Positions 51,428 through 62,699 of a DNA stretch of 64,000 nt are shown here, one piece after another. This DNA is from Parashewanella tropica. Lineage in GTDB: Bacteria; Pseudomonadota; Gammaproteobacteria; Enterobacterales; Shewanellaceae. The notes beneath the pieces are model-generated. The model saw only the letters and a list, made by a program, of their open reading frames with translations. It did no database searches and was not told the DNA's origin. Numbering within the stretch: the stretch's first letter is position 1; each line of letters begins with the position of its first letter. A program made the position numbers and the translations under genes. The stretch is from contig NZ_CP037951.1 in NCBI RefSeq assembly GCF_004358445.1, forward strand, positions 2,219,501 through 2,283,500. The letters run 5' to 3'.

Positions 51428-51733
51428 TTTCTTTGAACCAGACTGAATAGTTCAATTCAAATTAACGACAAGATGTTAAACATTTATTACTAGCGACCTA
51501 TTCTCCTTAGCAGTCAAATCAGCTCACCTAATTATCATATTTAATTAAATATCTAAGCCTTCGAAACACAAAAGCTGACATAGAAAGGGATTCATGGCAG
51601 TCAATTTAGCTCATAGCCACCTTAAAACAGGAGCGAAAACGCGAGTTAAACAAAGGCGCAATATTACAGTCACAAAAATGAAAACTTGATTTCCTACCTT
51701 TGCCGAATCTCAGATGAACTCACAGGAAAAATA
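51428..51733. promoter_or_regulatory. divergent region upstream of phytate receptor
   Basis: 306 bases between the GGDEF gene and the TonB receptor. It is AT-rich. I see no reading frame of note and no confident Pho box or other operator. It must hold promoters for both directions. Confidence 0.3.
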
Positions 51734-54451
51734 ATGAAAAAGCCAACTAAATTATCCATGTTGACACTGTCATTAATTGCAGCAGGGATGACTAATTTTG
51801 CCGTTGAGGCAGGCAAGTTTGAAGGTAACATCCGTGACAACAGCAGCCAGCAACCATTAGCAGGGGCAATTGTTTCGATAAAAGAACTGAATCAAACTCA
51901 AACAGCAGGTCGCGATGGGCGTTTCTTTTTTAATGGCTTAAAAGCTGGAACTTACACTGTCACCATTACTTATCTTGGTGCGGCGCCTCAAACTAAAACG
52001 ATTGAGGTCAAAGACAATACAACCACTAGCTTAAATGTGAAATTAAAAAGTGGCTCAATTGAACGTATTCAAGTTGTTGGTCAAGGCGGGTCGTTAAGTA
52101 AATCATTAAACCGTCAACGCAGTGCCGATAATCTAGTGAGCGTAATCAGTGCTGATGTTCTTGGTAACTTTCCAGACAGCAACGTAAGTGAAGCACTTCA
52201 AAGAGTTCCGGGCGTTTCAATTGAACGTGATCAAGGTGAAGGACGATTTGTTCGTGTTCGCGGTTTAGCGCCAGATTTCAATTCTGTTTCCATGAACGGT
52301 ACTCGCCTTCCAGCCCCTGAAGACAGCCGTCGCGCTGTAGCCCTTGATGTTATTCCATCCGATTTAGTTCAATCTGTTGAGGTCAGTAAAACACTATCGC
52401 CAGATATGGATGCTGATTCATTAGGTGGTGCAGTTGAAGTTAAGAGTTTATCGGCATTTGACCGTGATGATACTTTTTATAATGTTTCAGCTGAAGCCAG
52501 CTATAACCAGCTAAAAGAAGAAACGAGTCCTAAGCTAGCAGTTAGCTACAGTGATATTTTCAATGACAAATTCGGTGTGGCCTTTGCCGCAAGTTGGTAT
52601 AAGCGGGATTTTGGTTCAGACAATGTAGAAGCTGATGGTAATTGGAATTTTTCTGATAAAGGTCCTTTACTCGAAGAAGTTGAAGCACGTAGCTACGATA
52701 TTACTCGTGAACGTCTTGGCATTGGCTTAAACCTAGATTATCGTCCAAACGATAACAACGACCTTTACCTGCGTACTCTTTATAGCCAATTTGATGATAC
52801 CGAATCTCGGAATAGCTCAGCAGCCAAATGGGAAATTGGTGATGATGAGCTCGGACTTGCTGTTGGCCAAAAGCATGAGGCAGAAGTTAAACGCTCCCTT
52901 AAATCTCGTACTGAAGAGCAGAATATTACATCTTATGTATTTGGTGGTGAAAGCCGTTTTACCAAATGGACCATTGATTACCAATTAGCTTATTCTGAAG
53001 CGTCTGCTGGCAAACCACGTCATATAGACGGTGCTGATTTCGAAGCTGACATTGAAGATATGAGCTTCTCTGACACTCATACTCCAAGAATCATCGGCCC
53101 AGCTGCTTACAAAGATGCTGGTGAATACGAACTTAAAGAAATTGAAGTCGCTGACTCAAAAACCAAAGATGAAATGGTGTCTGCAAAAATCAACTTTAGC
53201 CGCAGTCTCGAAATCAACGATAACAGTGGTGAAATCAAATTTGGTTTGAAATCCAGCAAACGCGATAAAACCAACCGTGAAGATGTTTGGATTTTTGAAG
53301 ACTTAGATGAACAAGGCATTAGCGAAGATGCTTTGGTTATGAGTAACTTTACTGGAAGCGACATCGATTATCGACTTGGTCGCTTTGGTCCCTCAATTAA
53401 TGCAGCACCTATCTGGAACATCGTCAACAAGCTCAATGCTGACGATAACCTTGATGAAGTTGAATCTAAAATCAATGATTTTGATATCTCTGAAGACATT
53501 ACCGCAGGTTATATGATGGGTCATATTGACTTTGACAACCTCAGACTATTAGCTGGTGTCCGTTACGAAACCATGGATAGACAAGCCAATGGCTTTAAGT
53601 ATGATGAGTCAACGGAGAAATTCTCAGCGAATAACGTAAGTTCAAGTGAAGATCATTGGTTACCTGCTTTACATGCTAAATATAACCTATCAGATAACAC
53701 CATTATTCGTGCCGCATGGACGAATACCATCACCCGCCCTACTTTTGAAGAATTACGTCCTGGTTTCTTAATAGAAGATCACGATGGTGAACTTGAAGCG
53801 GAATTCGGCAACCCTGATCTCAAATCATTAGAGTCAATGAACTTTGACTTGAGCATTGAACATTACTTTGATGGTATTGGTTTACTTTCTGCGGGTGTAT
53901 TCTACAAAGACATTGAAAATTTCATCTATGAAAGTGACGTAGCTGGAACGGGGCAATATAAAAAGTTCGAAAAAGCCAAAACCTTTATCAATGGTCAAGA
54001 TGCAGAAATTAAAGGTGTTGAGCTAGCCTATGTTCAAGAGTTTAACTTCTTACCTGCGCCATTCAATGACTTAGTGGTAAATGCCAACGTTACATTGACG
54101 GATTCTGAAGCCGATATCGGCGATAAAATCATTCCTATGCCAAGTCAGTCAGATGTTAGCGCAAATTTATCTGTAGGTTATGAAGACGAATGGGCAAGCG
54201 TTTGGTTATCTGCTGCGTATAAATCTGAATATTTACAAGAAGTGGCTAAGACTGATATCTACGACGATAGCCACCTACAGTGGGACTTTGTAGCAAAAGC
54301 AAAAGTAACAGAGCAAGTTACGGTTTACTTTAAAGCTATTAATATCACAGATGAGCCATTCTATAGCTACCAAGGTAAACGTCGCTTCAATAACCAGTTT
54401 GAAGAGTACGGTCGTACCTTCCAGCTTGGTGTTCAAATGGTAAGCTTTTAA
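51734..54451 (+). CDS. TonB-dependent receptor (TIGR01782-like), probably for phytate
   Basis: The ATG at 51734, with AGGA six bases upstream, gives 905 residues; the longer frame from 51686 lacks a ribosome binding site. A signal peptide is followed by a carboxypeptidase-regulatory-like domain (residues ~28-110, GNIRDNSSQQPLAGAIVSI). The plug is typical of the TIGR01782 group (FPDSNVSEALQRVPGVSIER, RFVRVRGLAPDFNSVSMNG, SPDMDADSLGGAVEVKS). The barrel ends ...LGVQMVSF. It lies 11 bases upstream of a phytase gene, so uptake or capture of inositol phosphates is the likely role, by inference. Confidence 0.9.
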   Translation: MKKPTKLSMLTLSLIAAGMTNFAVEAGKFEGNIRDNSSQQPLAGAIVSIKELNQTQTAGRDGRFFFNGLKAGTYTVTITYLGAAPQTKTIEVKDNTTTSLNVKLKSGSIERIQVVGQGGSLSKSLNRQRSADNLVSVISADVLGNFPDSNVSEALQRVPGVSIERDQGEGRFVRVRGLAPDFNSVSMNGTRLPAPEDSRRAVALDVIPSDLVQSVEVSKTLSPDMDADSLGGAVEVKSLSAFDRDDTFYNVSAEASYNQLKEETSPKLAVSYSDIFNDKFGVAFAASWYKRDFGSDNVEADGNWNFSDKGPLLEEVEARSYDITRERLGIGLNLDYRPNDNNDLYLRTLYSQFDDTESRNSSAAKWEIGDDELGLAVGQKHEAEVKRSLKSRTEEQNITSYVFGGESRFTKWTIDYQLAYSEASAGKPRHIDGADFEADIEDMSFSDTHTPRIIGPAAYKDAGEYELKEIEVADSKTKDEMVSAKINFSRSLEINDNSGEIKFGLKSSKRDKTNREDVWIFEDLDEQGISEDALVMSNFTGSDIDYRLGRFGPSINAAPIWNIVNKLNADDNLDEVESKINDFDISEDITAGYMMGHIDFDNLRLLAGVRYETMDRQANGFKYDESTEKFSANNVSSSEDHWLPALHAKYNLSDNTIIRAAWTNTITRPTFEELRPGFLIEDHDGELEAEFGNPDLKSLESMNFDLSIEHYFDGIGLLSAGVFYKDIENFIYESDVAGTGQYKKFEKAKTFINGQDAEIKGVELAYVQEFNFLPAPFNDLVVNANVTLTDSEADIGDKIIPMPSQSDVSANLSVGYEDEWASVWLSAAYKSEYLQEVAKTDIYDDSHLQWDFVAKAKVTEQVTVYFKAINITDEPFYSYQGKRRFNNQFEEYGRTFQLGVQMVSF

Positions 54452-54462
54452 GGTAAATCATA

Positions 54463-56361
54463 ATGACTAACAATAATGATAATAGAATGAAAACATTTAC
54501 AAAAACTCTTTTAGGAATCTCTGTTGCTGCTGGTTTACTTGGCTTGACGGCTTGTAATCAAAGTGAGCCAGTAGCTCAGCAAGCAGCTAAAGCGGCTACA
54601 GTAATTTCACCTCAATATACCAGTTTTAGCGATGTTAAAGGTGGGCAAGCACAACCGTTTGATAACGGTTGGTTAGTTACTAGCGAAAAGCAAGGTTTGC
54701 TTATTGTTAGCAACAACAAAGATCCTAAAGGCAAACTTTGGTTAAAGGGCGAGTTTACGTTACTCGGTATCCATGATGATTTGGTGGTCACTTATGATCG
54801 TCGCAATGATCAAGTGCAACCAATACTCGTCAAAGATGGTAAGCCTGACGTCCAAGTTCAACTACCTAAACGTGACTTTGAAATCAACTGGCTTTGCATG
54901 CAACCGCGTAAAGCAGATGGACTAACTTACGCTTGGTTTGGTAGTGAGCATGGCATCGCCGAGCAATGGTTACTCTCTAACGGCAAAGAGTTTAAGCCTC
55001 GCCTTGTTCGTAAGCTGTCTGTTCCTGTTGGTTCATTAGATTGTGCTTATGATGCAAATAGCGACAGCTTATATATTGCTGAACAAAATGCGGGCATTTG
55101 GAAATACAGTGCTCAGCCTGAAGCCGCTAATGAAACAGAATTAGTTGTTTCTAAACCGAACAACAAGATCACATCGCTATTTGAGTTGAACGGTAACCTG
55201 CTTTATCAGAATGAATCTGGCGACATTTTTGATTTAGAGGGTCAAGTTGCAAAAATTTCCGGTGATGAAGTTGAAAAACTCACGGCTCGCAATGTTGGAA
55301 ATGAAGTTGAAATCGTAAGTTTTGATGATGAGGTCGATAGCTATCGTTTTGCTTCATTAAACCTCGAACTACCTAAACCTGTTAATAAAGAGTCTCTTAT
55401 TTCAGAAATTCCTGCTTGGGTTGAAAGTGGAACTTCAGACCGTTCTGGCGATACTATGGATGATCCTGCTATCTGGGTTCACCCTACCTCACCTGAAAAA
55501 AGCCTGATCCTTGGTGCTCAAAAACGTTGGGGCTTACAAGTTTTCGATATGACAGGTCAAGAGGTTCAATCTATCGCAACAGGACGTATCAACAATGTTG
55601 ATATTCGCCAAGGAATCACTATCAATGGCAATAAGCACGATATTGCCGTGGCCAGTCTTCGTGATGGCGACAGGCTTGCTTTCTACGATGTCAGTTCAAA
55701 CGGAAAAGTTACAGAGCTTGCAAAGCTTACAACTGATTTATCTGACATCTATGGAATGTGTTTGTATAACGATGGCTCTCATTTGTTTGCTTTAGCGAAT
55801 GAAAAGTCAGGTAAAACTATTCAATACAAAGTTTCATGGAAAGGTATGAAACCGAGTATTGAAAATATCCGCACCCTATCTGCTCCTTCTCAAGTAGAAG
55901 GTTGTGTAGCGGATGACAATACTGGTGATTTATTTATTGGTGAAGAAGACACTGGTATTTGGCACTTTAGTGCTAAACCTGAAGCAAGCACTCAAGGCTC
56001 ATTGATCTTGAAGGCGGACGGCAAGCAACTTGTAGCCGATGTTGAAGGGTTAGCCCTTTATCACGGTAAAGATGAAACCTATTTAGTCGCTTCAAGCCAA
56101 GGTAATGATTCTTATGTCATCTATGATGCAAAAGCGCCTTATACATTCAAAGGTCACTTTAGAATTGGTACAAACTTTGACACTGGTATCGACGGCAGCT
56201 CTGAAACTGACGGCCTTGCCGTTACTTCAAAAGCTGTAGGTTCAGGCGCTTGGCAGCAAGGAATGTTGGCGGTTCAGGATGGTCGAAATCGCTTGCCTGA
56301 TGGAAACCAAGTTTTTAAATGGGTGCCTTGGAGTGAAATCAATAAATTATTAGTGAAGTAA
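54463..56361 (+). CDS. beta-propeller phytase lipoprotein, two propeller domains
   Basis: 632 residues. A lipoprotein signal with lipobox LTAC (about residues 28-31) anchors it in the envelope. The C-terminal propeller (about 315-630) carries phytase hallmarks: DTMDDPAIWVHPTSPEKS, GLQVFDMTGQ and VEGCVADDNTGDLFIGEEDTGIWHFSAKPE. The N-terminal ~280 residues repeat the pattern (SLYIAEQNAGIWKYSAQPE) but lack the full calcium and active-site motifs, so it is an incomplete second propeller, as described for other dual-domain phytases. It would release phosphate from myo-inositol hexakisphosphate. Operon with the TonB receptor; ends at a strong terminator. Confidence 0.92.
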   Translation: MTNNNDNRMKTFTKTLLGISVAAGLLGLTACNQSEPVAQQAAKAATVISPQYTSFSDVKGGQAQPFDNGWLVTSEKQGLLIVSNNKDPKGKLWLKGEFTLLGIHDDLVVTYDRRNDQVQPILVKDGKPDVQVQLPKRDFEINWLCMQPRKADGLTYAWFGSEHGIAEQWLLSNGKEFKPRLVRKLSVPVGSLDCAYDANSDSLYIAEQNAGIWKYSAQPEAANETELVVSKPNNKITSLFELNGNLLYQNESGDIFDLEGQVAKISGDEVEKLTARNVGNEVEIVSFDDEVDSYRFASLNLELPKPVNKESLISEIPAWVESGTSDRSGDTMDDPAIWVHPTSPEKSLILGAQKRWGLQVFDMTGQEVQSIATGRINNVDIRQGITINGNKHDIAVASLRDGDRLAFYDVSSNGKVTELAKLTTDLSDIYGMCLYNDGSHLFALANEKSGKTIQYKVSWKGMKPSIENIRTLSAPSQVEGCVADDNTGDLFIGEEDTGIWHFSAKPEASTQGSLILKADGKQLVADVEGLALYHGKDETYLVASSQGNDSYVIYDAKAPYTFKGHFRIGTNFDTGIDGSSETDGLAVTSKAVGSGAWQQGMLAVQDGRNRLPDGNQVFKWVPWSEINKLLVK

Positions 56362-56441: not shown

Positions 56442-56771
56442 CTAAACTTCATCGTCTTGAGTAGATTTTGGTTTTAATTCCACCATAGGTACGCCACCTT
56501 CAAGGCTTAATTCATCCTCAGTTGTTGGCTGTTCAGCTTCAGATAACTCTGTTAATTGAATTTCGGGTTTTGGCAGAGTATCAACGGATACTGTATCTTG
56601 ACGACTATTTAATTCTGCCGCCTGCATGCGTATTGCTAACTCTGCTTCTTGTAGTCGGAATTCTGCCTGAATAGCTTTAACACGTGCCTCCCTTTCTACT
56701 CTTTTCTGCTCCAACCGCTGCATCTTAGCTGCATTAATCTTGTCTATTACACTACGCTCACTAGCTAACAC
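56442..56771 (-). CDS. small coiled-coil protein or C-terminal fragment
   Basis: 109 codons from a GTG at 56771. The first ~55 residues are strongly charged and helical (EQKRVEREARVKAIQAEF, RLQEAELAIRMQAAEL), a likely coiled coil. The tail is acidic (TTEDELSLEG). It overlaps the end of the 1045-residue ankyrin gene by seven bases in another frame. It may be a coupled downstream gene, or the real C-terminus of the ankyrin protein separated by a one-base indel. No convincing ribosome binding site is visible. Function unknown. Confidence 0.5.
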   Translation of the reverse strand: MLASERSVIDKINAAKMQRLEQKRVEREARVKAIQAEFRLQEAELAIRMQAAELNSRQDTVSVDTLPKPEIQLTELSEAEQPTTEDELSLEGGVPMVELKPKSTQDDEV

Positions 56772-59700
56772 TGCACTTGGAAGCCTTTGGTGATCTCTTG
56801 ACCCCCTTTAGTTTCTTTGGAAATTTTATGTGCAATTTGTGCATAGTTTAGGCCATAAAACTTTGAATTATTAGCAGCAGAATTCGCAGGTAAAAGATAT
56901 CCAACTGGAGTAGTGATATCAAAGCCTTCTTTGAGCAAACAACCAATTGTATAAGCATCCCCATTGATTGCAGCAATATGAGCAAGATTGTGCCCTTCTT
57001 CATCAACTAAAGTTTCATCAAACTGTACATGACTCATCAACTCTCCAGCTGCAAATGCTTTTCGTTTTTTCACTGCATATAGAAGAATGGGTTGCTCGCT
57101 TAAGGCAACAACACCACCAAGATCCATGTATAAACTAAACACTCTAATACAACCGATGTTATTGGTATCAACCGCATACTCTAGTGGAGTTTTACCTTCA
57201 TTATTGGTTTCAAATGGCGATAAGCCATTTTGTAGTAACCCCTCAAGACATTTGTCTTTCGAATACCTGACAGCAAAATGTAAGTAGTTATTGCCACCTT
57301 TATCGACAGCTTGAAGGTTGCATTTAAATTTGGAAGCAACATAAAGTAGAATTTGTGGGTTATCTGAAATAATGGCACGTCTTATTAACTCATCTTTTTC
57401 ATCTGTAGTGTCAACGCTTGCTCCAGCTTTTATAAAGGCTTCAACGCCATCCATATCTCCCCTTTCAACAGCCAACATCAAAGGTGATACATCTTTTTTA
57501 TCACTGCCATTAATATCTGCTTTTAAGGTTTTAGCAGAGAGCCATAGATCTCTAATTTCTGAATCCGCATGTAACGCTACAAAATGATGCAAATTTTGTC
57601 CATTGTCGTTAACTACTTCAAGATCTATATCGACAAGAGACATTAGGTACATAGCCGCTTGCTTATTCCCCGAGCTCAAAGCAGTCATAAGCGGTGTATT
57701 TCCTCCTGCACCTCTGCAATTGACATCCGCTGCTGCAGCGTACTTTTCAATTTTGGCACCAGCACTAATCGCTCTCATCAAGAGTGTATCTCTAGAACTT
57801 GTACTGCATTTTTCAAGCATTGACCTAGGGAGCCAATCAAGTAATCTAGAACCGTTAACGACATCTAAATATTTATCCAAAGCTCCAAGCTCATCAGCTC
57901 GAGTAATTGCCAATTGGCGGAACTCAAAAGTGATCAAAAGTGGGGATACTACTTGTAGCTCTTCAATGGAACAAGTCTTCAGAAATTTAGTAAACGCCGC
58001 TTTGACTTTAACCTCATCTCTTAAATCACGTTCGTCAATTCTCTGCGCTTGTCCTTTTAACTCTTCAACTTCCATTTCAAACTCAGCACTATATAGCTGA
58101 TGAAATTCTGTGAGCTTGTTTAAAAATGAAGTTAACATTGTCTCTTGCTTTAACTCATTCAACTTACCCTCTTTTTGTAGCTGATACTCTCTAATTTCAG
58201 CTTCTTTTGCAGCTTTAATTTTTTCTTCTTGTTCTTGTGCTTGCCTTACTGCCCAACTTGATACTCTTTCTTTTATATTCTTAATTCCAGGCCTTAATTC
58301 AGGCTTACCCAGTTGGTGCCACTTTGCTATTTTTTCTTTTATTGCTTCTTTCCAAAAAGAAACATCGTCATCCGTAATCGGTAGCTTTGAATTGCCAAGG
58401 TTGTCGAATAAGTTAGTTAATTGCATCCAAATTGGATCATTTACATCTTCAGGAAAATGACCCTTGGCATATAAGTCAGTAACTGTTGCAACGGTTTCTG
58501 CCTTTTTAAGTTCCCGTTCAACCAAAGGTGGAAAACCTTTGAACAGCAACTCAGCTTGTTCTTTCGCCAAAGGATTCTCCAGTTCCTTGATATACAAACT
58601 GTCAGGTAATTCCTCTAATGCTTTTCTGGCTCCTGAACGTGCCAAACACCATTCCAATATCTGTTGACGGCGAAAATCAACGATTTCATCAGAAAGCTTT
58701 GCAACAGATAATGCTTGCTCAACAGCAATTCCTAACTCAATAACCGACAATTCTCCTTCATAAGTCATTTTTGCTGTCTCAGCAGTATATTTTGCCGCTA
58801 CTCGGCTTGAGGTTAAATCTGCAACTACAATTGCAAATGGCTCTTTCCTAATTGCCCACTGCCATGCATACGGTTCGGTAAGCTTAATTTTGCCATCTGC
58901 AACAAGCTTTTCTAATGTAATTAACATCGCATGCTCAGCAATCATAGAAAGTGGAGGTACTACTTTTGCACTCAGCTTTTGATGATAAAATTTGTCCCAT
59001 TCCTCGAGACTATCGATTGACGATATAATTTGAATAACAAGAGCGTTACCATCTTCAGAATTTAACAGCTCTTTGAATTCACTGGGAGTAAGATCAGCAG
59101 ATGTGACTAATTTAGGGATTCCAGTCTGCTTATCTGCACAATAAAATCGAACACCATCAGCAGTTTTTACACCATTTGCTTCTGTCACAAAGCGCATGTT
59201 CTCCATAGCGACCACATCTGAAGGCACAGATTGCTTTGTTAAATGAACTAATGATTGAACTGGAACAAGCTGCCTAACTTGCGCCACAATACCCTTTATA
59301 TTTCGTACATTTTTAGGTGATGATTTTGGGGATACTCTAGCCCCTAGAACGATACCGTATTCCTGACGTAGTTGATCGACAATCGCTTTTTTTTCTTCAG
59401 TAGTTAGCTTCCTTTTCGGGCTTGCTTGTGAAACCTCCACACCATCTATGGCTTTTAATAGTAACTCTTGAGTTTTTTCACAACGTTCATGGCGATCATC
59501 TTCACTTTTATCAGTCTCTAGGATTACAAGCGGGTAATCTAGAAGATCGGCATCTAGAACATTGGATTTTATTACAAAACAGCGTGTCATTTGTGCTACA
59601 GCATCAACTTTACTCTGAACTGGAACATTAGAATCATTTAAAAGTTGTGTAATTTTTTTTAACCTAGCAACAAAAAGCGGTGATGATTTTTCTATGTCGA

Positions 59701-59902
59701 TAGAGTTCTCCTCCAGCTCCATTAAGGCTGTTTCAAATCGCTGAAGATCAACAGAGTTTATATGCTCAGATTGCGCAATATTTGCAAGTGACCGGATGAA
59801 ACCTTCTGAAAGTGCACGAGAATCTACACCTTCCAACTCTTGAAAGTCCGAACTTAATTCTTGGCTAGCCATTACACCGCTTGCTGTTTGCTCTACTGAC
59901 AT
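56765..59902 (-). CDS. large ankyrin-repeat protein, 1045 residues
   Basis: No signal peptide. The N-terminal ~150 residues are helical, with a pattern (VARLKKITQLLNDSNVPVQS near residue 85) that by eye resembles the 933-residue ankyrin protein at 21.8 kb. The middle is unknown. A charged coiled-coil-like helix spans about 552-590 (QAQEQEEKIKAAKEAEIREY). Ankyrin units cover about 700-1015 (GNTPLMTALSSGNKQAAMYL, VSPLMLAVERGDMDGVEAFI, GNNYLHFAVRYSKDKCLEGL, GKTPLEYAVDTNNIGCIRVF, GHNLAHIAAINGDAYTIGCL). It is divergent from the J-domain operon. A large intracellular scaffold or an exported effector are both possible; no secretion signal is visible. Confidence 0.85.
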   Translation of the reverse strand: MSVEQTASGVMASQELSSDFQELEGVDSRALSEGFIRSLANIAQSEHINSVDLQRFETALMELEENSIDIEKSSPLFVARLKKITQLLNDSNVPVQSKVDAVAQMTRCFVIKSNVLDADLLDYPLVILETDKSEDDRHERCEKTQELLLKAIDGVEVSQASPKRKLTTEEKKAIVDQLRQEYGIVLGARVSPKSSPKNVRNIKGIVAQVRQLVPVQSLVHLTKQSVPSDVVAMENMRFVTEANGVKTADGVRFYCADKQTGIPKLVTSADLTPSEFKELLNSEDGNALVIQIISSIDSLEEWDKFYHQKLSAKVVPPLSMIAEHAMLITLEKLVADGKIKLTEPYAWQWAIRKEPFAIVVADLTSSRVAAKYTAETAKMTYEGELSVIELGIAVEQALSVAKLSDEIVDFRRQQILEWCLARSGARKALEELPDSLYIKELENPLAKEQAELLFKGFPPLVERELKKAETVATVTDLYAKGHFPEDVNDPIWMQLTNLFDNLGNSKLPITDDDVSFWKEAIKEKIAKWHQLGKPELRPGIKNIKERVSSWAVRQAQEQEEKIKAAKEAEIREYQLQKEGKLNELKQETMLTSFLNKLTEFHQLYSAEFEMEVEELKGQAQRIDERDLRDEVKVKAAFTKFLKTCSIEELQVVSPLLITFEFRQLAITRADELGALDKYLDVVNGSRLLDWLPRSMLEKCSTSSRDTLLMRAISAGAKIEKYAAAADVNCRGAGGNTPLMTALSSGNKQAAMYLMSLVDIDLEVVNDNGQNLHHFVALHADSEIRDLWLSAKTLKADINGSDKKDVSPLMLAVERGDMDGVEAFIKAGASVDTTDEKDELIRRAIISDNPQILLYVASKFKCNLQAVDKGGNNYLHFAVRYSKDKCLEGLLQNGLSPFETNNEGKTPLEYAVDTNNIGCIRVFSLYMDLGGVVALSEQPILLYAVKKRKAFAAGELMSHVQFDETLVDEEGHNLAHIAAINGDAYTIGCLLKEGFDITTPVGYLLPANSAANNSKFYGLNYAQIAHKISKETKGGQEITKGFQVQC

Positions 59903-60074: not shown

Positions 60075-60103
60075 GAGACAAAGTCGATAACTTTTGATAT
60101 TAT
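60075..60103 (+). promoter_or_regulatory. candidate promoter of the J-domain operon
   Basis: GAGACA (60075-60080), a 17-base spacer and TATTAT (60098-60103), about 78 bases before the ATG. It matches sigma-70 moderately; there is no heat-shock sigma-32 pattern. Confidence 0.4.
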
Positions 60104-60180: not shown

Positions 60181-60462
60181 ATGATAAATCACTTTACTGT
60201 GCTGGGTATTAAAGCCAACGCAAAAGACGATGAGATCAAAAAAGCGTATAAACGTTTATCAAATAAATATCATCCCGATAAACTCATAAATGCATCAGAG
60301 GAAGAAAAGCAACACGCTGCTACTTTATTACAACGCATTCAAAATGCTTATGAAGTCTTGTCTTCCCCTAAATCTCGTAAAGCATTTATTCGTGACTTTA
60401 ATAATGTCATTGTTAACGATCCAACCGCTGCCATGAAAGAGCTGTGGGATGGTTATTTTTAA
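60181..60462 (+). CDS. small J-domain (DnaJ-like) protein
   Basis: 93 residues starting at ATG 60181 (AGGAAC upstream). It is almost entirely a J domain: helix I HFTVLGIKANAKDDEIKKAY, helix II KRLSNKYHPDKLI with the essential HPD, and helix III QRIQNAYEVLSSPKSRKAFI. There is no Gly/Phe region, zinc finger or substrate-binding domain. It would stimulate an Hsp70 ATPase and recruit it to a partner, presumably one of the three downstream products. First gene of a tight four-gene operon. Confidence 0.9.
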   Translation: MINHFTVLGIKANAKDDEIKKAYKRLSNKYHPDKLINASEEEKQHAATLLQRIQNAYEVLSSPKSRKAFIRDFNNVIVNDPTAAMKELWDGYF

Positions 60463-60486
60463 TTCTATTGGTACCTTGAGATTACT

Positions 60487-60981
60487 ATGACTGATCAACT
60501 CGATCTTAATTACGTCAACCAATTAAAGTTAGACGCGCTTGAAAACATTGAGTCTTACCAAGACCCTGATACACCTGAAGCCTTGGCTCAATACACCAAT
60601 CAAATGAAGAAAGCGCTATTGGCTGACGCCAGCATGCTAAGTTCGTTACCTGAATACCTCACTGTCGCTCTATATGGCAATGTTCGTTTTCCAGAGCAAG
60701 TACACCTTAAATGGCAAAACTGGATAGATAACAACACCATGCCTTCATGGGATGAATTTAAAGTCAGTGTTGCATTTAATAATGAAGATATTCCACTGGT
60801 TAAGGCTGTAAAAGATGAATCTGAAGCCTTATTAAAGCAAAGTTGTGCCGCATTATTTCAAATGATGATTATCGACACTAAGCCTGTTGCAAAAAAAGAA
60901 GGCTTAGAAGATCTCAACGAACATAACGATGATTACAGTGACGAATATCAAGATCAGTATGATTATGATGAGGAATATTAA
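60487..60981 (+). CDS. acidic protein of unknown family (J-domain operon, gene 2)
   Basis: 164 residues, no signal or membrane helix. It is mostly helical with a highly acidic Asp/Glu/Tyr-rich tail (DDYSDEYQDQYDYDEEY). It starts 24 bases after the J-domain gene and its stop overlaps the next start (TAATG). I do not recognise the family. The acidic, apparently disordered C-terminus could be a chaperone client tag or interaction tail; that is speculation. Confidence 0.85.
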   Translation: MTDQLDLNYVNQLKLDALENIESYQDPDTPEALAQYTNQMKKALLADASMLSSLPEYLTVALYGNVRFPEQVHLKWQNWIDNNTMPSWDEFKVSVAFNNEDIPLVKAVKDESEALLKQSCAALFQMMIIDTKPVAKKEGLEDLNEHNDDYSDEYQDQYDYDEEY

Positions 60982-61739
60982 TGAATAGTCTCATTGAGTT
61001 AACCGCAGCAGAAATCAAACAACTAGCGGATGTTGAACCTAAGCAAGCCAGCAAGAAGTTTGAACTGATCGCCAATACCATGAATGATGAGCAGTTAGTT
61101 GAAGTCATCGAAAACATGGATATTGTGACGCTCACTCAAATCAACAGCAACCATGATATTTCTTGCCCATCTATCATGTCAGAGTTGATGACGCCTGAAC
61201 AAATTCGTGACATCGTTTGTCAGCAACCGCTTTATTGGGAAGAAAAAGTCAAAAGTAATGCAGATGAACTGATGCAGCAAACCTTCGACTTTTTAACCTA
61301 TTTAATTCGAGTTCAGCCAAGCGAGGAAAAGCAAGCTGAAGTACTTGAGTGTATTGCAGAAGAGCCAGCAGGTTTATTTTATCTTTCAATTCCATTTATC
61401 GAATTGTTGATGACACCGTCTGAAGACGATCTGGACAATAATATTGCCGATGTTTTTGATGATGAAGATGACGGAACCACTGTGGGTTACACAGACCGCA
61501 CTGAAGCAGAAGAGTCTCGCAGTCTAGAAATTGATGATCCGCGTAGTTTACTGGCGCTCATCAAAGAACTTGCACCTGAAGTCGAGCAGCAAATCAAGAA
61601 CCTACTGAAAAACCAATCATCAAACTGGCAAACCATCATAAATAAGTTTGTAGGTGAAATCGTTACTCAAGCTAAAGAAAAGAACGAGTCAAAAGATGAG
61701 TATTCAGAAGTTGACGATATGTTTAGCTTTTTAGACTAA
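60981..61739 (+). CDS. acidic helical protein of unknown family (J-domain operon, gene 3)
   Basis: 252 residues, helical and acidic, without signal peptide. Two folded-looking parts (residues ~1-145 and ~180-250) are separated by an acidic linker (DNNIADVFDDEDDGTT). The end (DEYSEVDDMFSFLD) is acidic with aromatic residues, like a docking tail. It overlaps the upstream gene by one base and has GAGGAA as ribosome binding site, so it is translationally coupled. No family recognised. Confidence 0.85.
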   Translation: MNSLIELTAAEIKQLADVEPKQASKKFELIANTMNDEQLVEVIENMDIVTLTQINSNHDISCPSIMSELMTPEQIRDIVCQQPLYWEEKVKSNADELMQQTFDFLTYLIRVQPSEEKQAEVLECIAEEPAGLFYLSIPFIELLMTPSEDDLDNNIADVFDDEDDGTTVGYTDRTEAEESRSLEIDDPRSLLALIKELAPEVEQQIKNLLKNQSSNWQTIINKFVGEIVTQAKEKNESKDEYSEVDDMFSFLD

Positions 61740-61749
61740 GGAATACTCA

Positions 61750-62649
61750 ATGCAAATCGTATTAAGAGATTTGGATCAAGGTCCTTTTCTATCAAAAGTA
61801 TTGAACTTCGCCAAAGAAGAGGAAATTTTCTCTGAAGAAGAAGTAGCTCAAATCAAGCACAAAGGCGTGCTTATGAGCCTAAAACTTGCGGATAAGTTTT
61901 ACAATAAATACAAAATGCATTTATTGGAACAAGCCTCACAAGATGTGATTGGTGTTGCCAGCCTAGGTCTTGCAGCACTGACGAATCATGATCAAGTGAA
62001 AGCTATGCTTCTGCTTAAAAAGCCTGATGGCTTGGTTAAGAGCTTTCAAAAAGGCTGGAGCATGTTGACGGTTGCCAGTAAGTATCGCTTACTGCATGCT
62101 AAATCGGTATATGGTGATGTTGACCAACGCCTACTTGAAAGTGTCTCGGCTCCTGCTGATACTGATGAATGGAACGGTTGGGACAATTACCAAGAAGTGC
62201 TTAAAGAGTTTGAAACTCAACAAGCGGCTGAAGCCGTTAAAGCGTTATTTTTTGCTAATGGAAAATACGACCCCTTCGATTGTTTAACTATTGAAGAAAT
62301 GTTTGCCGAAGCCATTATTTATCGATTGTTCTTTGGTGTTCACACAAAAGTGAAAGAGGATCTAAAGAAAAACATCGTTACAATAGATTTCGAAGAACAA
62401 TGGCTAGAGCCAGAATTTGTTGAAGAGTTTATTAATAAACAGCTGGAACCTTTACCAGACTCGATACAAGATGTTATCAATGCAGATCTTAATAAAAACT
62501 TTAATGCAGCAGTTATTCGTACTTTAAGTTTTGCTAAGGTTTATCAGGCTGAAACACTCAAAGGTTCAACACCTGAAAAGCTTGATAGAATCGAGCAGAA
62601 AGCAGGAATGAATGGGCTATTAGGCTGGCCTCAGTATTTCGTTCTGTAA
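61750..62649 (+). CDS. helical protein of unknown family (J-domain operon, gene 4)
   Basis: 299 residues beginning MQIVLRDLDQGPFLSKVLNF, with no signal peptide. A moderately hydrophobic central helix (VIGVASLGLAALTNH) is too short and polar for a sure membrane span. It contains a Trp-rich stretch (DEWNGWDNYQEVL) and ends GLLGWPQYFVL. It starts 10 bases after gene 3 with GGAATA upstream and is followed by a strong terminator, so it closes the operon. Family unknown. Confidence 0.85.
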   Translation: MQIVLRDLDQGPFLSKVLNFAKEEEIFSEEEVAQIKHKGVLMSLKLADKFYNKYKMHLLEQASQDVIGVASLGLAALTNHDQVKAMLLLKKPDGLVKSFQKGWSMLTVASKYRLLHAKSVYGDVDQRLLESVSAPADTDEWNGWDNYQEVLKEFETQQAAEAVKALFFANGKYDPFDCLTIEEMFAEAIIYRLFFGVHTKVKEDLKKNIVTIDFEEQWLEPEFVEEFINKQLEPLPDSIQDVINADLNKNFNAAVIRTLSFAKVYQAETLKGSTPEKLDRIEQKAGMNGLLGWPQYFVL

Positions 62650-62674: not shown

Positions 62675-62699
62675 CCCCGATTATATATCGGGGATTTTT
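62675..62699 (+). terminator. rho-independent terminator of the J-domain operon
   Basis: CCCCGAT-tatat-ATCGGGG followed by A and T5, 25 bases past the last stop. Confidence 0.9.

What the first reader, a model, noticed from the sequence alone, without database searches (positions are those of the whole stretch)
60181..62649. Undescribed-looking operon: minimal J-domain protein plus three acidic unknown proteins
Seen: four genes with gaps of 24, -1 and 10 bases, a candidate promoter and a strong terminator. The first product is a bare J domain with HPD and no substrate-binding part; the other three match no family I recognise, and two have acidic tails. Known: J domains recruit Hsp70 to a specific client or complex. 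Inference: genes 2-4 form a complex assembled or remodelled by Hsp70, possibly linked to the divergent large ankyrin protein.
Basis: partly seen in the sequence, partly recalled or inferred. Interest (0 to 1): 0.75.

Follow-up and report, generated by a model that had tools for sequence, protein, structure and literature searches.

The report
Known cold-growth chaperone operon, atcJABC
The four genes are the already described atcJABC operon, whose short J-domain protein links the chaperone DnaK to partner proteins needed for growth in the cold; it is an ordinary example of a known system.

Summary
In detail: four genes with gaps of 24, -1 and 10 bases at 60181-62649, then a good intrinsic terminator. 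They are not undescribed. All four products pass the curated NCBIfam cut-offs for AtcJ, AtcA, AtcB and AtcC, the atcJABC cold-adaptation operon published for Shewanella oneidensis in 2019 (PMC6715715). Pfam knows only the J domain.

The unit is strictly linked: all four genes, in the same order, occur in the same 37 of 144 relatives. Around 80 named AtcB loci, A, B and C are in 80 and J in 79; the exception is a contig end.

The J protein is not 'bare': its 21-residue tail is at least as conserved as its J domain and corresponds to the published AtcC-binding peptide.

The ankyrin link is not supported: the nearest upstream ORFs of 71 loci fall into 31 groups, and of one member scanned per group only the two Parashewanella ones are ankyrin proteins.

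Likely mechanism: AtcJ bridges DnaK to AtcC-AtcB, possibly at RNA polymerase. Already known; low interest.

The parts
60075..60103 (+). candidate sigma-70-type promoter, GAGACA-17-TATTAT with TG before the second hexamer (weak)
   Evidence: 9/12 match; the region has no excess of such sites over shuffles
60181..60462 (+). atcJ: 93-aa J-domain protein, HPD at residues 31-33, conserved 21-residue C-terminal tail (residues 73-93)
   Evidence: NF050028 172.1 bits, cut-off 150, positions 1-93/93; Pfam DnaJ 67.4 bits; tail conservation
60487..60981 (+). atcA: 164-aa acidic protein with a poorly conserved but acidic C-terminal end
   Evidence: NF047888 205.2 bits, cut-off 200, profile positions 1-163/178
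60981..61739 (+). atcB: 252-aa acidic protein, the most conserved of the three partners, with a conserved C-terminal end
   Evidence: NF047889 493 bits, cut-off 440, positions 1-252/252; alignments; start overlaps the atcA stop by 1 base
61750..62649 (+). atcC: 299-aa protein, nearly all helix in the predicted model, expected binder of the AtcJ tail and of AtcB
   Evidence: NF047890 489.6 bits, cut-off 370, positions 1-297/297; model pLDDT 79.9
62675..62693 (+). intrinsic terminator hairpin after the operon
56765..59902 (-). divergent 1045-aa ankyrin-repeat protein; neighbour, not counted as part of the atc system
   Evidence: Pfam Ank_2 81.1 bits; found next to atcJ only in Parashewanella

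Best explanation
This is the atcJABC operon of a Parashewanella species, orthologous to the cold-adaptation operon characterised in Shewanella oneidensis. AtcJ binds and stimulates DnaK through its J domain and holds AtcC through its last 21 residues; AtcC binds AtcB. The chain brings DnaK to a place or client needed at low temperature, most likely RNA polymerase, which AtcB was reported to contact. Shown here: family membership of all four proteins, fixed order and strict co-occurrence, intact HPD, a conserved tail, and a DnaK gene elsewhere in the genome. Shown elsewhere, in S. oneidensis: the DnaK, AtcJ-AtcC and AtcC-AtcB interactions and the cold phenotype. Inferred: that the same holds in this organism, and that RNA polymerase is the destination (a meeting report only; I give that step about 0.5). 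AtcA's role is open. The confidence below is for the identity and the AtcJ-AtcC-AtcB chain, not for the RNA polymerase step.
For: Four NCBIfam equivalog matches over the curated cut-offs. The same 37 of 144 relatives hold J, A, B and C, adjacent and in the same order by their coordinates; the other 107 have no A, B or C match at E up to 0.001 and no AtcJ over its cut-off. Of 80 named AtcB loci, A, B and C are in 80 and J in 79; in the exception, L051, the contig begins 48 bases before the atcA match. HPD in 79 of 79 AtcJ. Tail residues F73, N75, V76, V78, P81, A84, M85 and W89 are invariant in 80 of 80 rows. A DnaK over its family cut-off lies next to the best J-domain match elsewhere in the genome. 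Biochemistry and genetics: PMC6715715, parts 1-4 of 7 read. 'AtcB contacts the RNA polymerase': a passage of PMC7871303.
Against: No function was tested in this organism. AtcA passes its cut-off narrowly (205.2 against 200). Nothing here shows that Parashewanella grows in the cold, and the S. oneidensis operon is expressed almost constitutively, so cold may not be its only role. The RNA polymerase step rests on one meeting report; the 2023 meeting report still calls the mechanism unresolved. The 7 nM AtcJ-AtcC affinity argues against AtcC being an ordinary transient client.
Confidence: 0.95

Rival explanations
1. The DnaK substrate is AtcC or AtcB itself: AtcJ feeds them to DnaK, which remodels the AtcB-AtcC complex, as HscB does with IscU for HscA, rather than targeting DnaK to RNA polymerase. 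This shares the identification and differs in the last step only.
For: AtcJ binds only AtcC among the Atc proteins, and dedicated class C J proteins such as HscB work this way (discussion of PMC6715715).
Against: Kd of 7 nM and a 13-degree rise in AtcC melting temperature look like a stable complex, not client hand-over; AtcB is reported to contact RNA polymerase.
Confidence: 0.3
2. The divergent ankyrin protein is the functional partner or client of the J-domain operon.
For: In 4 of 5 Parashewanella genomes the divergent neighbour of atcJ is a large ankyrin protein, and in the fifth an ankyrin ORF lies one ORF further on (ORFs of 150 aa or more considered).
Against: Nearest upstream ORFs of 71 named loci fall into 31 groups. 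One member each of the 29 groups outside Parashewanella was scanned with Pfam and 0 of 29 has an ankyrin match; the two Parashewanella groups do. Parashewanella genomes carry 83-163 Ank_2 stretches against 0-3 in three sampled genomes of the neighbouring genus. The ankyrin protein diverges far faster: 38% identity against 97% for AtcB between the window and P. curva.
Confidence: 0.03
3. An undescribed operon of unknown function that only resembles atcJABC.
For: Pfam has no match better than E 0.005 for A, B or C (window AtcA; 15 AtcB and 15 AtcC); AtcC has no convincing fold match.
Against: Four equivalog matches over their cut-offs in the published gene order.
Confidence: 0.01

Closest known systems
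atcJABC cold-adaptation operon of Shewanella oneidensis (SO_1850, SO_1849, SO_1848, SO_1846; PMC6715715)
   Same: Four genes in the same order; 93-94-aa J protein with HPD at 31-33 and a 21-residue tail; atcA and atcB overlap; atcB is 759 bp in both; families match over curated cut-offs.
   Different: J-A gap of 24 bases here against 120 in S. oneidensis (the paper gives 8-24 for 74 of 80 genomes); atcA is 495 bp here against 540 bp in S. oneidensis.
HscB-IscU (dedicated class C J protein in an operon with its client)
   Same: Works like it in outline: a J protein dedicated to a partner encoded beside it (comparison made in PMC6715715).
   Different: AtcJ scores far better as AtcJ (172 bits) than on the HscB models (36 bits at most, all below cut-off). 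The genome has another J-domain match beside a second Hsp70, HscB-HscA by inference.
Bacterial class A and B J proteins (DnaJ, CbpA)
   Same: J domain, 67.4 bits to Pfam DnaJ.
   Different: At 93 aa it has no room for the G/F, zinc-binding or C-terminal domains; far below the full-length DnaJ (58.9 against 377.2) and curved-DNA-binding-protein (33.3 against 403) cut-offs.

Membership tests
atcJABC cold-adaptation operon | AtcJ: J domain with HPD, about 94 aa, 21-residue C-terminal extension | tested here: met
   93 aa, HPD at 31-33, conserved tail 73-93; NF050028 172.1 over 150
atcJABC cold-adaptation operon | AtcA family protein | tested here: met
   NF047888 205.2 over 200, narrowly
atcJABC cold-adaptation operon | AtcB family protein | tested here: met
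   NF047889 493 over 440
atcJABC cold-adaptation operon | AtcC family protein | tested here: met
   NF047890 489.6 over 370
atcJABC cold-adaptation operon | Gene order J-A-B-C with short spacers | tested here: met
   gaps 24, -1, 10; over the named loci the gap is 30 or less in J-A 61 of 79, A-B 78 of 80, B-C 72 of 80
atcJABC cold-adaptation operon | DnaK in the genome for AtcJ to act on | tested here: met
   one match over the TIGR02350 cut-off, 947.7 against 822.55
atcJABC cold-adaptation operon | Single transcript | not testable with these tools
   spacing and terminator only; RT-PCR is published for S. oneidensis
atcJABC cold-adaptation operon | AtcJ tail binds AtcC; AtcC binds AtcB; AtcJ, B and C needed for growth at 7 deg C | not testable with these tools
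   published for S. oneidensis
HscB (TIGR00714) | Score over the HscB family cut-off | tested here: not met
   21.2 bits against 46.75
DnaJ (TIGR02349) | Score over the full-length DnaJ cut-off | tested here: not met
   58.9 bits against 377.2, J domain only

The most novel reading that the evidence does not exclude
In Parashewanella the fast-evolving ankyrin protein divergent from atcJ has been recruited to the Atc network, for example as an added client or anchor for the AtcJ-AtcC-AtcB chain, giving a lineage-specific extension of a DnaK-targeting system.
Probability: 0.03. Interest if true: 0.4.

Novelty: already known. Interest (0 to 1): 0.12.

Why it matters
The comparison adds a little to the published picture: in the relatives searched the four genes are present or absent as one block, the AtcJ tail is as constrained as the J domain, and AtcB is the most conserved partner, which would fit contact with a conserved machine such as RNA polymerase. 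How the Atc proteins support growth in the cold was, by the 2023 meeting report (passage seen), still open, so the conserved residues are a ready list for tests in S. oneidensis.

Tried and rejected
Pfam, PHROGs and PADLOC gave nothing usable for A, B or C. The weak Pfam matches (DUF2947 to AtcA, E 0.016; Pfc11 domain to 12 of 15 AtcB, best E 0.0053; TIR_3 to 6 of 15 AtcC, best E 0.017) are treated as chance; for the window proteins the bit scores are below cut-off.

Solved structures: no AtcB profile match up to E 1. For AtcC nothing better than E 0.028, a short ankyrin design, which vanished in the profile search (best E 0.34); treated as chance. AtcJ matches only J domains, none beyond about residue 73.

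Predicted structures: AtcC is nearly all helix, pLDDT 79.9, with no Foldseek match below E 1.6 in the PDB. AtcB is helical at lower confidence, 69.5, with the last 15 residues under 50. Its fold search could not be run. The thought that AtcB resembles MgtE/FliG-type helical repeats is recalled, was not tested and is not claimed.

A defence-system reading was rejected: no PADLOC match for the four proteins. The ankyrin neighbour does match PADLOC candidate PDC-M72A (55 bits, over its repeat region) and, below their cut-offs, NCBIfam ankyrin effector models (at most 46 bits against 600); I take both as shared ankyrin repeats.

Full data for AtcB and RNA polymerase were looked for and not found in this library, which lacks most subscription journals. 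PMC8215388 (passages) only cites the 2019 paper.

Full report
Observation. Four ORFs on the + strand at 60181-62649 encode 93, 164, 252 and 299 aa with gaps of 24, -1 and 10 bases. A 7-bp hairpin with a T-rich tail stands at 62675-62693, -12.5 kcal/mol, z -2.5, with 4 of 200 shuffles folding as well. The promoter candidate at 60075-60103 is one of a set of sites that is not in excess over shuffles.

Identity. Pfam recognises only the J domain, but NCBIfam names all four over the curated cut-offs: AtcJ 172.1 (150), AtcA 205.2 (200), AtcB 493 (440), AtcC 489.6 (370). These are the products of atcJABC, described for S. oneidensis in PMC6715715; I read parts 1-4 of 7 of that text, that is abstract, introduction, results, discussion and the start of methods. 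The window lies in a 4.22-Mb single-contig genome. Its nearest named AtcB relative is Parashewanella curva, 97% identical. The genus Parashewanella is therefore inferred; the species is not settled.

Co-occurrence. In 144 relatives, AtcC (E up to 0.001), AtcB and AtcA (over cut-off) and AtcJ (over cut-off) are each found in 37 genomes, and by their handles these are the same 37, from 5 of 43 genera. In each of the 37 the coordinates in those listings give J-A-B-C adjacent and in order. In a thinner sample of the class, AtcC was found in 1 of 369 genomes, the window's own, so the system looks taxonomically narrow. A scan of named genomes with an AtcB alignment confirmed 109 places, of which the best 80 were kept and examined: Shewanella, Parashewanella, Moritella, Rheinheimera, Arsukibacterium, Aeromonas and MAGs named only as Gammaproteobacteria. 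A, B and C are in 80 of 80 and J in 79 of 80; in L051 the atcA match begins at base 49 of the contig, so J would lie off its end. Because that scan started from AtcB, it cannot show C or J without B; the whole-genome searches could, and show none.

Anatomy. Across 79 AtcJ plus the window, the 21-residue tail (73-93) has a mean commonest-residue frequency of 0.88 against 0.81 for residues 1-72, and mean identity to the window of 0.73 against 0.68. Eight tail positions never vary in the 80 rows. The J protein is thus not a bare J domain: the conserved tail corresponds in position and length to the peptide that binds AtcC in S. oneidensis with a Kd of 80 nM (7 nM for whole AtcJ). AtcB is the most conserved partner, 70-97% identical to the window over 14 relatives, against 49-74% for AtcC. 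Most of the last dozen residues of AtcB are nearly invariant although the model gives them low confidence. The AtcA C-terminal end varies in letters but stays rich in D, E and Y.

Mechanism. Published for S. oneidensis: the AtcJ J domain is functional and stimulates DnaK; deletion of atcJ, atcB or atcC, but not atcA, cripples growth at 7 deg C; AtcJ binds AtcC through its tail; AtcC binds AtcB. A meeting report adds that AtcB contacts RNA polymerase (passage seen, PMC7871303). A later one says the mechanism is still to be elucidated (passage seen, PMC10939069). I take targeting of DnaK through AtcJ-AtcC-AtcB as most likely, with RNA polymerase as the probable destination at about 0.5, and AtcC or AtcB as DnaK's own clients as the main rival. 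In this genome a DnaK over its cut-off lies next to the best J-domain match (within 3263412-3265858), and a second, lower-scoring Hsp70 lies beside the weakest J-domain match (within 1827424-1829956), a DnaK-DnaJ and HscA-HscB arrangement by inference.

Ankyrin neighbour. A large ankyrin protein is divergent from atcJ in the window and in three further Parashewanella genomes (1042, 1077 and 1401 aa); in the fifth (G001) a 541-aa ankyrin ORF lies beyond a 279-aa ORF that has no Pfam match (ORFs of 150 aa or more were listed). Similarity to the window protein falls from 38% over 1012 residues (G004) to 23% over 344 residues of the repeat region plus one weak stretch outside it (E 2e-4; G003) to a best E of 6e-4 (G002). 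Elsewhere it was not found. Of 71 named loci with at least 3.5 kb held upstream of atcJ, the window ankyrin protein matches one, L035 of P. curva. The nearest upstream ORFs of the 71 (120 aa or more) fall into 31 groups. One member of each of the 29 groups outside Parashewanella was scanned with Pfam: 0 of 29 has an ankyrin match, while L036 of P. hymeniacidonis and the G004 copy of the L035 gene do. Only the nearest ORF was scanned, so an ankyrin gene further off is not excluded, and some of these ORFs may not be genes. The five Parashewanella genomes hold 83, 110, 91, 163 and 148 Ank_2 stretches (in the last two only 150 candidates were scored, so these are lower bounds), against 0, 0 and 3 in three genomes of the neighbouring genus. 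Adjacency is best read as one ancestral neighbour in an ankyrin-rich genus.

Verdict. The finding is real but already known.

Noticed in passing
whole genome G000 and relatives G001-G004: Ankyrin-repeat expansion in the genus: 83-163 Ank_2 stretches per genome against 0-3 in three sampled genomes of the neighbouring genus. A search for papers holding both 'Parashewanella' and 'ankyrin' gave none in this library.
   Followed up: partly
window 56765-59902; L119:6879-10112, L120:5312-8440, L122:4812-9017: The ankyrin gene next to atcJ keeps its place in 4 of 5 Parashewanella genomes while its sequence diverges very fast (38% or less, against 97% for AtcB between the window and G004).
   Followed up: partly
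window 56442-56771 (-): 109-aa ORF directly after the ankyrin gene, overlapping it by 7 bases, with no Pfam or NCBIfam match and no tblastn relative in the 80 named loci.
   Followed up: no
window 51686-54451 and 54463-56361 (+): TonB-dependent receptor followed after 11 bases by a protein with a Pfam Phytase match (PF02333); perhaps a phosphate-scavenging pair (inference). An ORF of the same size, 632 aa, lies beyond the ankyrin gene in G004; its identity was not tested.
   Followed up: no
G078:C15:156532-157053: The AtcA match of one relative contains one in-frame TAA, so atcA may be broken or shortened there, which would fit AtcA being dispensable in the cold.
   Followed up: no
   Followed up: no
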